Shown here one piece after another: positions 8,965 through 21,387 of a DNA stretch of 37,343 nt (positions are counted from its first letter, which is position 1; each line of letters starts with the position of its first letter). Source of the stretch: an uncultured Dorea sp. GTDB taxonomy: Bacteria; Bacillota; Clostridia; Lachnospirales; Lachnospiraceae. A program made the position numbers and the translations under genes. The stretch is from assembly GCA_934307335.1 (NCBI GenBank), contig CAKRCL010000009.1, positions 1 to 37,343 on the forward strand, read 5' to 3'. The notes beneath the pieces are model-generated. The model was not told the origin of the DNA and did no database searches. It saw only the letters and a list, made by a program, of their open reading frames with translations.

Positions 8965-8993
8965 TTGACCCAGTGCAGGGCAGCATGTATAAT
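8965..8993 (+). promoter_or_regulatory. Strong promoter of the nitrogenase-like/hyp operon
   Basis: TTGACC (8965-8970), a 17-base spacer and a perfect TATAAT (8988-8993). Transcription should start near 9000, leaving a leader of about 190 nt before the first gene. This is the only convincing promoter between 8932 and the prepilin peptidase at 20710. Confidence 0.85.
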
Positions 8994-8999
8994 GAAAAA

Positions 9000-9188
9000 A
9001 GATTCAATAAGTAACAAGACTCTGACGGCAAGGTGATCCGAGCGGGAATAGTCGAACATATCAGATATGAAAAGATGCAGAATGGGGAATTTAGCATCTT
9101 TTCGTGGTAAACAAAGATATTCAGGACTTTTTCCAAAAGAGGAGAAAAGTCCTGTTTTGTATTTGAGATGAAAAATTGGGAGGATGAC
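9000..9188 (+). promoter_or_regulatory. Structured 5' leader of unknown class (candidate riboswitch/attenuator)
   Basis: The leader contains several pairings: GACU 9018-9021 with AGUC 9050-9053 enclosing a small multi-stem region, CAUAU 9057-9061 with AUAUG 9065-9069, and a perfect 10-bp stem 9069-9078/9094-9103 with a 15-nt loop. A terminator at 9122-9164 follows. AGUC (9050-9053) and AUAUC (9058-9062) can instead pair with GACU (9125-9128) and GAUAU (9116-9120). This would open the terminator, a classic mutually exclusive design. I do not recognise a known riboswitch consensus in it. GGGAGG at 9178-9183 is the ribosome binding site of the first gene. Confidence 0.7.
9122..9164 (+). terminator. 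Attenuator-type terminator before the first NifH-like gene
   Basis: Arms 9122-9131 and 9145-9154 pair perfectly over 10 bp. The stem can extend with CC/GG around a bulge, and it is followed by the U-rich run 9155-9164. It lies 25 bases before the start codon and downstream of the promoter, so it must be conditionally read through. Confidence 0.82.
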
Positions 9189-9944
9189 ATGTTAAAGGTA
9201 GCGATTTATGGAAAAGGTGGGATTGGAAAATCCACAGTGACTTCAAATCTGGCAGCAGCATTTGCTACGATGGGAAAAAAGGTGATTCAGATTGGATGTG
9301 ATCCAAAAGCAGATTCTACAATCAATCTTCTGGGAGGAGAGCCGCTTCGCCCGGTGATGAATTATATGCGGGAAGAAGATGAAGAACCGGAAAGATTAGA
9401 AGATATTTCTAAAAAGGGATTTGGAAATGTTCTTTGTATCGAAACGGGGGGACCGACACCGGGACTTGGGTGTGCGGGAAGAGGAATTATAGCAACATTT
9501 CAACTTCTTGAGGATTTACGATTGTTTGAGACATATAAGCCGGATGTAGTACTTTATGATGTTCTTGGAGATGTAGTGTGTGGCGGTTTTGCAGCACCAA
9601 TCCGTGAAGGATATGCAGAGAAGGTTTTGATTGTAACTTCCGGTGAAAAAATGGCATTATATGCAGCAAATAATATTTCCAGTGCAGTTCGTAATTTTGA
9701 AGATCGCAGCTATGCAAGAATATTTGGAATAGTACTGAATCACCGAAATGTAGAAAATGAGACACAGAAGGTACAGGCATTTTCAGAAGAAAGTGGAATT
9801 CCGATTGTAGGAGAGATTCCAAGAAGTGATGAGATCATTCGATATGAGGATCAGGGGAAGACTGTTATTGAAGGAAATTCAAAATCGAAGATCAGTGAAA
9901 GATTTTATGATCTGGCAAAAAAACTTCTGGAAAGTGAGGACTAG
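9189..9944 (+). CDS. NifH-like reductase (trio A)
   Basis: This is a P-loop ATPase of the nitrogenase iron-protein family, expected to be a homodimer holding one [4Fe-4S] cluster that passes electrons to its NifDK-like partner with ATP hydrolysis. Visible features are P-loop GKGGIGKS (residues 8-15), switch CDPKADST (37-44), and cluster cysteines C95 (GLGCAGRG) and C131 (DVVCGGF). R98 matches the ADP-ribosylation arginine of nitrogenase NifH. Length is 252 residues, shorter than true NifH (about 290), as in BchL- or CfbC-like groups. ATG 9189 has GGGAGG at 9178-9183. It is the first gene of the operon and is followed by its D-like partner after 4 bases. The family is certain; the target reaction is unknown. 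Confidence 0.93.
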   Translation: MLKVAIYGKGGIGKSTVTSNLAAAFATMGKKVIQIGCDPKADSTINLLGGEPLRPVMNYMREEDEEPERLEDISKKGFGNVLCIETGGPTPGLGCAGRGIIATFQLLEDLRLFETYKPDVVLYDVLGDVVCGGFAAPIREGYAEKVLIVTSGEKMALYAANNISSAVRNFEDRSYARIFGIVLNHRNVENETQKVQAFSEESGIPIVGEIPRSDEIIRYEDQGKTVIEGNSKSKISERFYDLAKKLLESED

Positions 9945-19544: not shown

Positions 19545-20689
19545 GACAGACATATAAAATTATACCAGTTTACACGGCTGATGTATCAGGGGTTTGTTCA
19601 GCACTTTATGAGCTTGGCGGCATGACGGTGATGCATGATCCATCTGGTTGCAATTCTACCTATAATACACATGACGAAATCCGCTGGTATGATCAAGATA
19701 GCTTGATATTTATATCTGGGCTTACGGAAATTGATGCAATCATGGGAAATGATGAGAAGTTTTTAAATGATATTATAACGGCGGCGAAAGAGTTAAAGCC
19801 AAAGTTCATTGCGCTTGCGGGTTCACCGATTCCGTACATGAATGGAACTGATTTTCCGGCATTGGCAGAAGTGCTGGAGCAAGAATTAAGAATTCCTGCA
19901 TTTTCAGTACCGACAAATGGCATGCATGATTATGTATATGGAGCGGGAATTGCACTGGAGATGATTGCAAGGCGTTTTGTCCGTGGGGAGCGTAAAAAAG
20001 AAAATATACGACAAAAGACAGTTAATCTTTTGGGTGTAACCCCATTGGATTTCGGGGCATATAGCCGTGCCTGTTATATGAAAGAGAATCTGGAAAAATG
20101 CAATTGGAAGATATTGTCAAGCTGGACTATGAATGATGATTTACAAACATTGAGTCATGCGCCGGAAGCAGAAGTGAACCTTGTAGTGTCTTCGGTAGGA
20201 ATCCGCGCTGCAAAATATCTGGAAAAAGAATATGGAATGCCCTATGTAGTAGGGGCACCGATTGGGACATTTACAAAGCATATCGTAAAGGCCTTAGAAG
20301 AAAAAGAACGGTATCCGTATAAAAGTGCATATAAGAATCTGAAAAATGGGGAAGGGATAAAAAAAGTTGTAACATTAATTGGAGAGCCGGTTATAACAGA
20401 ATCCCTGGCAGCTGCAATAGAATGTAACTATCCTGTATCGGTACAGGTGTTGTGTCCGTTACAGGAGACAGAAGAGCTGTTAGGTCAGACAAGCCAACAG
20501 ATTCTTGGTGAAGAAGATATGGAAAAAGCATTGGAAAAAGCGAAAATAATTATAGCTGATCCGCTATATAAACAAATCTGTCCGGAGGGATGCCAATTTT
20601 ATGAATTGCCACATCTTGCATTTTCGGGAAGGATATATAAGAAAAGGTTGGAAAAGATAGAAGATTTTTGGAAATATGAACAGATATAA
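19541..20689 (+). CDS. NifK-like nitrogenase component 1 subunit (trio B)
   Basis: A 382-residue partner of the preceding gene. C37 in PSGCNST is at the same residue number as the conserved C37 of the trio A protein; A-C32 is His here, and C19 is additional. The loop equal to NifK Cys153 reads GSPIPYMNGTD, with no Cys, as in trio A. I chose ATG 19541 (ATGA overlap with the D-like stop) because the distance from Met to the YELGG motif is then the same as in trio A; an in-frame ATG at 19520 would have a ribosome binding site pressed against it. The C-terminal CPEGCQFYELPHLAFSGR adds two cysteines near the end. Confidence 0.86.
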   Translation: MRQTYKIIPVYTADVSGVCSALYELGGMTVMHDPSGCNSTYNTHDEIRWYDQDSLIFISGLTEIDAIMGNDEKFLNDIITAAKELKPKFIALAGSPIPYMNGTDFPALAEVLEQELRIPAFSVPTNGMHDYVYGAGIALEMIARRFVRGERKKENIRQKTVNLLGVTPLDFGAYSRACYMKENLEKCNWKILSSWTMNDDLQTLSHAPEAEVNLVVSSVGIRAAKYLEKEYGMPYVVGAPIGTFTKHIVKALEEKERYPYKSAYKNLKNGEGIKKVVTLIGEPVITESLAAAIECNYPVSVQVLCPLQETEELLGQTSQQILGEEDMEKALEKAKIIIADPLYKQICPEGCQFYELPHLAFSGRIYKKRLEKIEDFWKYEQI

Positions 20690-20709
20690 AAATAGGTGAG
20701 TGAAACGAT

Positions 20710-21387
20710 ATGTTGATTGTTTTGAAAATAATTTTATGGTCGTTTAGGTTTTTTGTGGGTGCCGTTATCTTTCGTTGTGCGTATGTCTTGATGGACTACT
20801 TGTCAAGAGATGAGAAGATGTTGGAAGAGGATAGCCATATTCGAAAAAGAATTTTTCTGGTTGAATTCATTGGCGGGGTAACGTTCATTATTTGTGGATT
20901 TCAGTATGGTTATGGAAAATTTGGAGTGTTATCCTTACATGCTTCAGTTATATTTGTTTACCTTGGAATATTGCTTGTGATAGCAATGATAGATTGGAAT
21001 CGACAGATGATTTATGATAGATTTCATATTTTAATTTTGATATTGGCAATTGCAAATATATGGATTGCGCCAGAACATGGATTTGCGGATCGTCTGATTG
21101 GATCAGTAATCGTTTCCCTTCCGATGTTGGTTTTGGCGGTTATTGTACCAGGAGCATTTGGTGGCGGTGATATTAAGTTGATGGCGGTTTCAGGCGCCTT
21201 TCTTGGAGCAGGACCTGTAATCTGTGCAATGTTTTTGGGACTTTTGAGTGGAGGTGGATATGGTGCTTTCATGTTAAAGTGCAAAAAACTAGGAAGAAAA
21301 GATTCATTCGCATTTGGACCATTTCTTGCATTTGGACTCACAGTTGCAGCATTATATGGAGATCAGATTATTTCGAGATGTTTGTGA
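20710..21387 (+). CDS. A24-family prepilin peptidase-like protein
   Basis: A 225-residue polytopic membrane protein of the type IV prepilin peptidase family, aspartic proteases that cut prepilin-like leader peptides at the cytoplasmic face. The two active-site aspartates are D95 in AMIDW and D154 in the GGGD motif (FGGGDIKLM). The N-terminal methyltransferase domain with paired CXXC motifs is absent, so it may cleave without methylating. GGTGAG at 20695-20700 precedes the ATG. It follows the last nitrogenase-like gene by 20 bases with no promoter or terminator between, so it is probably the last gene of that operon. No pilin gene is nearby and its link to the operon is unexplained. Confidence 0.85.
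   Translation: MLIVLKIILWSFRFFVGAVIFRCAYVLMDYLSRDEKMLEEDSHIRKRIFLVEFIGGVTFIICGFQYGYGKFGVLSLHASVIFVYLGILLVIAMIDWNRQMIYDRFHILILILAIANIWIAPEHGFADRLIGSVIVSLPMLVLAVIVPGAFGGGDIKLMAVSGAFLGAGPVICAMFLGLLSGGGYGAFMLKCKKLGRKDSFAFGPFLAFGLTVAALYGDQIISRCL

What the first reader, a model, noticed from the sequence alone, without database searches (positions are those of the whole stretch)
8965..21387. Operon of two nitrogenase-like trios flanking HypFCDE
Twelve genes read from one promoter with mostly overlapping junctions: NifH/D/K-like A, hypF, hypC, hypD, hypE, TM1266-like, NifH/D/K-like B and a prepilin peptidase. Hyp proteins are known for the Fe(CN)2CO unit of [NiFe]-hydrogenases and nitrogenase-like proteins for ATP-driven difficult reductions. 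I know of no described pathway joining them. Inference: a CN/CO-ligated iron may be part of a nitrogenase-like cofactor, with one D/K pair as scaffold and the other as catalyst, or the product may be a new metallocofactor. No NifB-like radical SAM gene is present in the window.
Basis: partly seen in the sequence, partly recalled or inferred. Interest (0 to 1): 0.93.

Follow-up and report, generated by a model that had tools for sequence, protein, structure and literature searches.

The report
Alternative assembly line for iron hydrogenases
Bacteria with this gene set, among them gut and gas-fermenting species, carry iron-only hydrogenases but nearly all of those tested lack HydG, the enzyme known to make that enzyme's carbon monoxide and cyanide ligands; the set joins cyanide-making Hyp proteins to two nitrogenase-like enzymes and is predicted to do HydG's job by another chemistry, which would explain how these bacteria mature the hydrogenases they use to make and use hydrogen.

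Summary
The operon is real: HDK trio A, hypFCDE, a TM1266-like regulator and HDK trio B (9189-20689); the prepilin peptidase is no part of it (no counterpart in 80 related loci). The order recurs in Lachnospiraceae, Clostridium acetogens, Oscillospiraceae and Negativicutes, with hydF or hydE in the fetched stretch in 32 of 80 loci. Of 50 genomes with trio B, 49 have [FeFe]-hydrogenase, 48 HydE, 47 HydF, 1 HydG. In two evenly drawn class samples (236 and 200 genomes) a strong D_B match occurs in 32 genomes, none with HydG; in the first, 10 of 11 genomes with HydF but no HydG carry it, against 0 of 148 with both. Hyp active-site cysteines are intact; both D/K pairs keep three P-cluster cysteines but lack FeMo-cofactor ligands. 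The set most likely replaces HydG in building the H-cluster: Hyp proteins would supply cyanide-bearing iron, the nitrogenase-like pairs ATP-driven electrons (inferred). A second variant has trio B and a metal-chelate-type importer, without Hyp and trio A. Missing hydG is an acknowledged puzzle in acetogens (PMC9431212). No experiment tests the replacement yet.

The parts
8965..8993 (+). promoter-like site TTGACC-17 nt-TATAAT
   Evidence: 11 of 12 consensus positions; such sites are not enriched over shuffles
8996..9188 (+). structured leader RNA with conserved core (about 9020-9053) and a hairpin followed by T-rich sequence; candidate riboswitch or attenuator
   Evidence: z-score -4.0; core found ahead of H_A in 22 other operons; no Rfam family reaches its gathering score
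9189..9944 (+). H_A, NifH-like Fe protein of trio A
   Evidence: below the NifH, CfbC, BchL and BchX cut-offs
9949..11238 (+). D_A, component 1-like alpha subunit of trio A
11235..12395 (+). K_A, component 1-like beta subunit of trio A
12398..14761 (+). hypF, carbamoyltransferase
   Evidence: TIGR00143 761 bits, over cut-off
14767..14976 (+). hypC
   Evidence: PF01455; Cys2 and His45 in 38 of 38 relatives
14976..16034 (+). hypD
   Evidence: TIGR00075 382 bits, over cut-off; cysteines kept
16091..17110 (+). hypE
   Evidence: TIGR02124 432 bits, over cut-off; C-terminal Cys is the last residue in 45 of 45 relatives
17162..17434 (+). TM1266-like protein, putative regulator of the iron-only hydrogenase system
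   Evidence: TIGR03959 115 bits, over cut-off
17428..18195 (+). H_B, NifH-like Fe protein of trio B
18189..19544 (+). D_B, component 1-like alpha subunit of trio B, with a C-terminal cysteine tail
19520..20689 (+). K_B, component 1-like beta subunit of trio B
20710..21387 (+). A24 prepilin-type peptidase; adjacent, not part of the conserved set
   Evidence: no homologue in 80 related loci

Best explanation
This operon most likely replaces the radical-SAM enzyme HydG in the maturation of [FeFe]-hydrogenase: it is predicted to supply the cyanide- and carbon monoxide-bearing iron that HydE and HydF build into the H-cluster. Shown: the genes, their conserved order, their linkage to hydF/hydE/aspA/TM1266, and near-perfect mutual exclusion with HydG in genomes that keep [FeFe]-hydrogenase, HydE and HydF. 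Inferred, step by step: (1) HypF and HypE turn carbamoyl phosphate into enzyme-bound thiocyanate, as in [NiFe] maturation; (2) HypC-HypD load cyanide, and probably one CO, on one iron; (3) trio A, which sits beside hypF in the gene maps, would use ATP-driven low-potential electrons on that iron complex, perhaps by making CO from CO2 to replace a cyanide; (4) trio B, the part that sits with HydF/HydE, would pass on a reduced Fe(CO)2(CN)-type unit to HydE; (5) HydE, HydF, the ammonia-lyase and the hydrogenase then proceed as known. In variant II, which lacks Hyp and trio A, the genes of a metal-chelate-type ABC importer stand in place of those for steps 1-3; it would bring in an iron complex for trio B.
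For: Linkage: of 80 loci found through D_B, 49 hold hyp genes, 46 a trio A gene, 56 TM1266, 24 HydF, 21 HydE, 32 HydF or HydE, 6 AspA; 62 hold at least one of TM1266/HydF/HydE/AspA. Representatives pass the NCBIfam HydF and HydE cut-offs and an aspartate ammonia-lyase subfamily cut-off. AspA and TM1266 are typical of [FeFe] maturation: AspA in hyd operons (PMC11736057, passages), TM1266 by its family name. Genome content, 50 of the 80 genomes: HydG over cut-off 1, HydF 47, HydE 48, [FeFe]-hydrogenase 49, [NiFe] large subunit 12, of which 7 strong. In 18 of the 50 the closest thing to HydG in the whole genome is HydE itself; of 30 with a middling hit, seven were checked and all seven are ThiH. 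Even samples: class of Coprococcus comes, 236 genomes: HydG 154, HydF 159, strong D_B 10; D_B in 10 of 11 HydF+HydG- genomes, 0 of 148 HydF+HydG+, 0 of 71 with neither; Fisher p 5e-15, and 1e-12 without the two genomes already in hand. Class of Megasphaera paucivorans, 200 genomes: HydG 127, D_B 22, both 0; p 2e-11. Of the 29 of these 32 D_B genomes whose region I fetched, 26 show hyp genes with trio B. Hyp active-site residues are intact. PMC9431212 (passages) reports hydG not found in five of eight Clostridium acetogens and HypCDEF without HypAB in five of eight (four species in both lists), without linking the two. Blautia luti makes H2 and its extracts show H2:viologen activity, with two [FeFe]-hydrogenase genes named, and B. 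schinkii is quoted at about 23,000 mU/mg (PMC12773636, passages); my genomes of these two species (strains MSK.16.34 and MSK.6.26: L011, L012) have the operon, HydE and HydF but no HydG and no [NiFe] subunit.
Against: No experiment links these genes to H-cluster synthesis. C. drakei (L042) has both the operon and HydG, so the set can coexist with HydG. Blautia sp. MSJ-9 (L010/G006) has the operon but no HydE match and no HydF over cut-off, and one weaker PF02906 hit. G028 (a 2.0 Mb genome) has the operon and a [NiFe] subunit but no HydE or HydF. G013 lacks HydF over cut-off; G039 lacks an [FeFe] match. G189 has HydF and HydE but neither HydG nor a nitrogenase-like gene over cut-off. Seven of the 50 genomes have a strong [NiFe] subunit, so in those HypCDEF could also serve it. 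Mature [NiFe] iron is Fe(CN)2CO while the H-cluster needs Fe(CO)2(CN)-type units, so the chemistry of the conversion is unexplained. Four genomes carry a weaker D_B relative (trio plus importer) and three of these have HydG: the wider family is not tied to HydG loss. In 48 of 80 loci neither hydF nor hydE is in the fetched stretch, and neither is in this window. Related genomes are not independent points, so the p-values overstate. The window's own genome is not held, so HydG, HydE and HydF were not tested there.
Confidence: 0.78

Rival explanations
1. The operon builds a new nitrogenase-like enzyme whose own cofactor contains CN/CO-ligated iron, one D/K pair acting as scaffold and the other as catalyst.
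For: HypFCDE are intact and sit between two D/K pairs; the two pairs are near relatives in one clade, as scaffold and catalyst pairs might be.
Against: Both D/K pairs lack the FeMo-cofactor ligand positions. It does not predict absence of HydG, nor linkage to HydE/HydF/TM1266/AspA. Variant II keeps trio B in HydE/HydF genomes and drops Hyp and trio A.
Confidence: 0.08
2. HypFCDE serve a [NiFe]-hydrogenase elsewhere in the genome and the nitrogenase-like trios are unrelated passengers.
For: 7 of 50 genomes have a strong [NiFe] large subunit; Hyp proteins are canonical.
Against: 38 of 50 genomes have no match to the [NiFe] large subunit and 5 more only short weak ones. hyp genes occur in 49 of 80 loci selected through D_B alone.
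Confidence: 0.03
3. HydG is replaced by a diverged radical-SAM tyrosine lyase or by free CO and cyanide; the operon does something else in the same metabolic setting, such as supplying iron or another cofactor to the hydrogenase.
For: PMC9431212 proposes an atypical HydG homologue and scavenging of free diatomics (passages). The nearest kin of trio B pair it with a metal-chelate importer.
Against: In 18 of 50 genomes no HydG/ThiH-like protein other than HydE is found; in 30 others the best match is below the cut-off and the seven checked are ThiH. Hyp proteins are a known cyanide source for iron, and the exclusion with HydG is near complete in two classes.
Confidence: 0.11

Closest known systems
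HydE-HydF-HydG maturation of [FeFe]-hydrogenase
   Same: Same hydrogenase, same HydE and HydF, with AspA and TM1266 at hand.
   Different: HydG is not found over cut-off in 49 of 50 operon genomes tested; in variant I hypFCDE plus two nitrogenase-like trios stand in its place.
HypABCDEF maturation of [NiFe]-hydrogenase
   Same: HypF, HypC, HypD, HypE are true family members over their cut-offs or Pfam threshold, with catalytic residues kept.
   Different: In one operon with nitrogenase-like genes; 38 of 50 genomes have no [NiFe] large-subunit match.
NifEN, dark-operative protochlorophyllide reductase (BchNBL) and CfbCD
   Same: Component 1 fold with an Fe protein; three P-cluster-position cysteines kept, compatible with one [4Fe-4S].
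   Different: No sequence reaches the NifE, NifD, BchN, BchB or CfbD cut-offs; separate clade from Nif and Bch in the trees; no CfbCD row was in the trees.
MarHDK methylthio-alkane reductase and other group IV NflHDK
   Same: Nitrogenase-like HDK sets; MarD is among the fold matches.
   Different: About 15-16% identity in fold alignments; other Nfl pairs from the same genomes fall in a different part of the tree.
HDK plus binding-protein ABC importer operons without hyd genes (L214-L217) and a remoter kin on Sporomusa termitida plasmid pSPTER (L228)
   Same: L214-L217 are the nearest kin of trios A and B and share the order H-D-K-binding protein-permease-ATPase with part of the variant II loci; the Sporomusa trio is also next to an iron-type importer.
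   Different: Three of the four L214-L217 genomes have HydG; no Hyp, HydE or HydF was matched in the fetched stretches; function unknown.

Membership tests
HydG-type CO/CN synthase | radical-SAM HydG protein present in the genome | tested here: not met
   1 of 50 operon genomes over the TIGR03955 cut-off; 0 of 32 strong D_B genomes in two class samples. The operon works in HydG's place; it is not HydG.
[FeFe]-hydrogenase maturation system | co-occurs with [FeFe]-hydrogenase, HydE and HydF | tested here: met
   49, 48 and 47 of 50 genomes
[FeFe]-hydrogenase maturation system | operon products needed for H-cluster synthesis | not testable with these tools
   needs deletion or in vitro maturation
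Hyp Fe(CN)2CO machinery | HypF, HypC, HypD, HypE with catalytic residues | tested here: met
   HypC Cys2 38/38, HypE C-terminal Cys 45/45, nine HypD cysteines each in 45 or 46 of 46
Hyp Fe(CN)2CO machinery | serves a [NiFe]-hydrogenase | tested here: not met
   no PF00374 match in 38 of 50 genomes, strong in 7
Nitrogenase (NifHDK/EN) | passes NifH/NifD/NifE models | tested here: not met
   NifH 308 and 315 bits against 394; NifE at most 69 against 505
Nitrogenase (NifHDK) | six P-cluster cysteines and the alpha Cys275/His442 cofactor ligands (position names recalled) | tested here: not met
   alpha C88, alpha C154, beta C95 kept; alpha C62, beta C70, beta C153 and H442 positions hold other residues and C275 aligns to a gap in the 8 D_A, 12 D_B, 8 K_A and 12 K_B rows; one D_B row has a Cys in the column beside the C275 position
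CfbCD (F430 cyclase) | passes CfbC/CfbD models | tested here: not met
   CfbC 304 and 311 bits against 402; CfbD at most 28 against 268
BchLNB / BchXYZ | passes models; clusters with Bch in trees | tested here: not met
   (BchL, BchN, BchB are long separate branches)
MarHDK | falls in the MarHDK clade | tested here: inconclusive
   no Mar rows in my trees; PDB comparison gives 219 bits for the MarHDK Fe protein against 247 for NifH with H_A and about 15-16% identity for D

The most novel reading that the evidence does not exclude
The H-cluster has a second, non-homologous biosynthetic origin: cyanide from carbamoyl phosphate through HypFE-HypCD, CO from CO2 by ATP-driven nitrogenase-like chemistry, both joined on one iron by trios A and B and handed to HydE. 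In variant II, bacteria without Hyp import a ready-made iron-cyanide/carbonyl complex released by neighbours, so that an organometallic precursor is a shared good in gut communities.
Probability: 0.3. Interest if true: 0.98.

Novelty: categorically new. Interest (0 to 1): 0.94.

Why it matters
HydG is held to be the source of the CO and CN ligands of [FeFe]-hydrogenases. PMC9431212 did not find it in five of eight industrial Clostridium acetogens and could not explain that. This set gives a concrete, testable answer that also covers gut Lachnospiraceae, Oscillospiraceae, Erysipelotrichaceae and Negativicutes. It joins three textbook metallocofactor systems ([NiFe] Hyp, [FeFe] Hyd, nitrogenase-like) in one pathway. 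It would also bear on where Hyp-made CO comes from without oxygen, and offer a tyrosine-independent way to make hydrogenases in biotechnology.

Tried and rejected
Considered and dropped: a new nitrogenase-like catalyst with CN/CO iron (no cofactor ligands); [NiFe] service; a tetrapyrrole cyclase (model scores far below cut-offs); prepilin peptidase as a member. The TAL-effector matches of D_B have no stretch that passes on its own and are taken as chance word matches. A search for the leader motif in 20 stretches at and beside [FeFe]-hydrogenase genes (186 kb) and in the HydE/HydF loci L081-L108 found none, so a shared riboswitch regulon is not shown. Rfam on the leader gave only sub-threshold matches. 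Consensus folding of the leader core gave weak covariation, 2 of 9 pairs with a change on both sides. The abcP/abcA pair at 21459-23040 is nitrate/taurine-type and not the importer of variant II. No HypA, HypB or NifB genome search was made. Trees: a CfbCD or MarHDK row was not available; the BchL branch is very long and the D/K tree is a quick one with long reference branches. Rows dropped: four weak D_B-like genomes (G113, G167, G180, G175) were kept out of the strong D_B count, three of them HydG-positive; 30 of the 80 loci were not given to (limit of 50 per call); one search had 50 genomes and one search had 35.
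Full report
WHAT IS THERE. The stretch 9189-20689 codes, on one strand and with tight junctions, for an Fe protein and a component 1-like pair (trio A), HypF, HypC, HypD, HypE, a TM1266-like protein and a second Fe protein with its pair (trio B). D_A starts at 9949, not 9826. The prepilin-type peptidase behind it (20710-21387) has no counterpart in any of 80 related loci and is a neighbour, not a member.

CONSERVATION. 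A genome scan with an alignment of D_B found 87 relatives; 80 loci were kept. 49 of 80 hold hyp genes, 46 a trio A gene, 27 all ten structural genes and 22 of those also TM1266; a number of others are cut by contig ends. Record titles name Blautia, Coprococcus, Roseburia, Anaerobutyricum, Clostridium ljungdahlii, C. ragsdalei, C. carboxidivorans, C. drakei, Megamonas, Megasphaera, Solobacterium and Mogibacterium, among others.

THE CLUE. Two of the commonest extra genes near trio B are hydF (24 of 80 loci) and hydE (21 of 80), with aspA in 6; 32 loci have hydF or hydE. Representatives score 569 bits for HydF (cut-off 326), 538 for HydE (255) and 569 for an aspartate ammonia-lyase subfamily (510). 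HydE and HydF are known as [FeFe]-hydrogenase maturases (PMC9431212, passages), aspA is tied to hyd operons (PMC11736057, passages), and TM1266 is named for the iron-only hydrogenase system. The third maturase, HydG, was not among the common neighbours, which led to the genome tests.

GENOME TEST 1. In 50 of the 80 genomes (limit per call): HydG over cut-off in 1 (C. drakei); HydF 47; HydE 48; [FeFe]-hydrogenase 49; [NiFe] large subunit 12, of which 7 strong and 5 short weak N-terminal matches. In 18 genomes the only HydG-like hit is HydE itself, at the same place, and one genome (G028) has none. In the other 30 the best hit is below the cut-off; seven of these were fetched and all seven pass the ThiH cut-off.

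GENOME TEST 2. To avoid choosing genomes by the operon, I searched evenly drawn class samples. Class of Coprococcus comes, 236 genomes: HydG 154, HydF 159, D_B strong (E below 1e-130) 10. HydF without HydG: 11 genomes, 10 with D_B. HydF with HydG: 148, none with strong D_B. Neither: 71, none. HydG without HydF: 6, none. Fisher p 5e-15; 1e-12 without the two genomes already in hand. Four genomes have weaker D_B relatives, three of them with HydG; these are the trio-plus-importer family. Class of Megasphaera paucivorans, 200 genomes: HydG 127, D_B 22, overlap 0, p 2e-11. Of the 32 D_B genomes, three loci were already in hand and I fetched the region for the other 29: 26 show hyp genes with trio B, two are variant II (G111, G244), and G342 shows trio B alone, its D_A match lying on another contig. 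Relatedness inflates these p-values; the pattern nevertheless repeats in two classes and, by titles, variant II in Erysipelotrichaceae.

TWO VARIANTS. Variant I: trio A, hypFCDE, trio B. Variant II (14 of 80 loci): trio B with a BtuF/FecB-type binding protein, a BtuC/FecCD-type permease and an ATPase, TM1266 in 14 of 14, HydF in 8 and HydE in 6 of 14, without Hyp. No locus has both hyp and the binding protein (0 of the 63 with either). HypD is absent from the whole genome in the 13 variant II genomes searched of the first set (G036-G048) and in G111 and G244. These 15 genomes have one D/K pair or less over cut-off and no HydG. Two further genomes whose trio B stood alone (G049, G050) hold trio A and hyp genes on another contig. 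So trio B is the constant part, and trio A with Hyp excludes the importer.

THE PROTEINS. Hyp active sites are intact: HypC Cys2 and His45 in 38 of 38, HypE ending in Cys in 45 of 45, nine HypD cysteines each in 45 or 46 of 46. D_B and D_A are predicted with good confidence (pLDDT 88 and 84) and take the nitrogenase component 1 fold, at 11-19% identity to the best 50 solved chains. Aligned to NifD/NifK, both pairs keep alpha C88, alpha C154 and beta C95 and lack alpha C62, beta C70, beta C153, the alpha C275 cofactor ligand and the H442 ligand (position names recalled); one D_B row of 12 has a Cys beside the C275 column. I infer one [4Fe-4S] cluster per pair and an emptied cofactor pocket, which suits a reductase acting on a bound guest. 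In trees, trios A and B and the importer-linked trios of L214-L217 form one clade for each subunit, apart from Nif, Bch and other Nfl sets of the same genomes; H_A, D_A and K_A are each one clade.

MECHANISM, AND WHAT IS INFERRED. The H-cluster needs one CN and one to two CO per iron. HydG normally makes both from tyrosine (PMC9431212). Here HypFE can make cyanide from carbamoyl phosphate and HypCD can hold an iron with CN and CO (established for [NiFe] maturation). The excess cyanide and the second CO need explaining; nitrogenase-like proteins driven by ATP could make CO from CO2 (recalled chemistry of nitrogenases and their Fe proteins, no call) or reduce the complex to the state HydE accepts. 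Trio A goes with Hyp and trio B with HydE/HydF, so I place A first and B second. None of these steps has been tested.

PHYSIOLOGY. Blautia luti makes H2, its extracts oxidise H2, and two hydrogenase genes, hydA and hydM, were reported in its genome; B. schinkii extracts are quoted at about 23,000 mU/mg (PMC12773636, passages seen). My genomes of both species (strains MSK.16.34 and MSK.6.26; I did not compare them with the strains of that paper) carry the operon, HydE and HydF, and lack HydG and [NiFe] subunits. So working [FeFe]-hydrogenases without HydG are likely real. The gut hydrogenase survey PMC12578642 does not mention HydG or maturases in its main text (word search).

LITERATURE. Searches for nitrogenase-like with HypCDEF, HypD/HypE, HydG/HydF, group IV/NflH, Lachnospiraceae and Blautia terms listed no paper that joins these genes (listings and abstract starts only, save the papers named here). 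PMC9431212 (outline and passages) reports both halves of the puzzle, hydG not found in five of eight species and HypCDEF without HypAB in five of eight, and offers other explanations. It assigns a HydG to C. autoethanogenum, which I did not test. Only open-licence papers are held.

EXCEPTIONS. C. drakei has both systems. Blautia sp. MSJ-9 has the operon without HydE/HydF. G028 and G013 lack HydF (G028 also HydE). G039 lacks an [FeFe] match. G189 has HydE/HydF with neither HydG nor D_B. The window's own genome is not held.

VERDICT. As a pathway claim I hold it at about 0.78; the detailed chemistry is much less sure.

Noticed in passing
8996-9188: Leader RNA ahead of H_A with a core (TGACGGCRAGG..ATCCGAGCGGGAA) found ahead of H_A in 22 other operons, followed by a terminator-like hairpin in the window; no Rfam match at gathering score. 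A candidate new riboswitch or attenuator, which might sense the pathway product.
   Followed up: partly
L214, L215, L216, L217; L228 (Sporomusa termitida plasmid pSPTER): HDK trios next to a metal-chelate ABC importer without hyd genes, in the plasmid case also near a TonB siderophore receptor: perhaps a nitrogenase-like reductase tied to metal-complex uptake.
   Followed up: partly
35125-37122: 2-isopropylmalate synthase (residues 7-551) with AraC-type regulator matches over residues about 540-664: an apparent LeuA-AraC fusion.
   Followed up: no
6664-6773 (-) and 5237-6562 (-): TPP riboswitch before thiC.
   Followed up: no
21459-23040 (-): Nitrate/taurine-type ABC permease and ATPase; the same pair and queH follow K_B in [Ruminococcus] faecis (L019), so the window is probably from a Lachnospiraceae relative.
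   Followed up: no
D_B residues 443-451 (19515-19541): C-terminal tail KGWGCESCI; by one alignment the first Cys is kept in 70 of 78 and the last in 44 of 78 relatives, by another of 12 rows both in 12 of 12. Its role is unknown.
   Followed up: no
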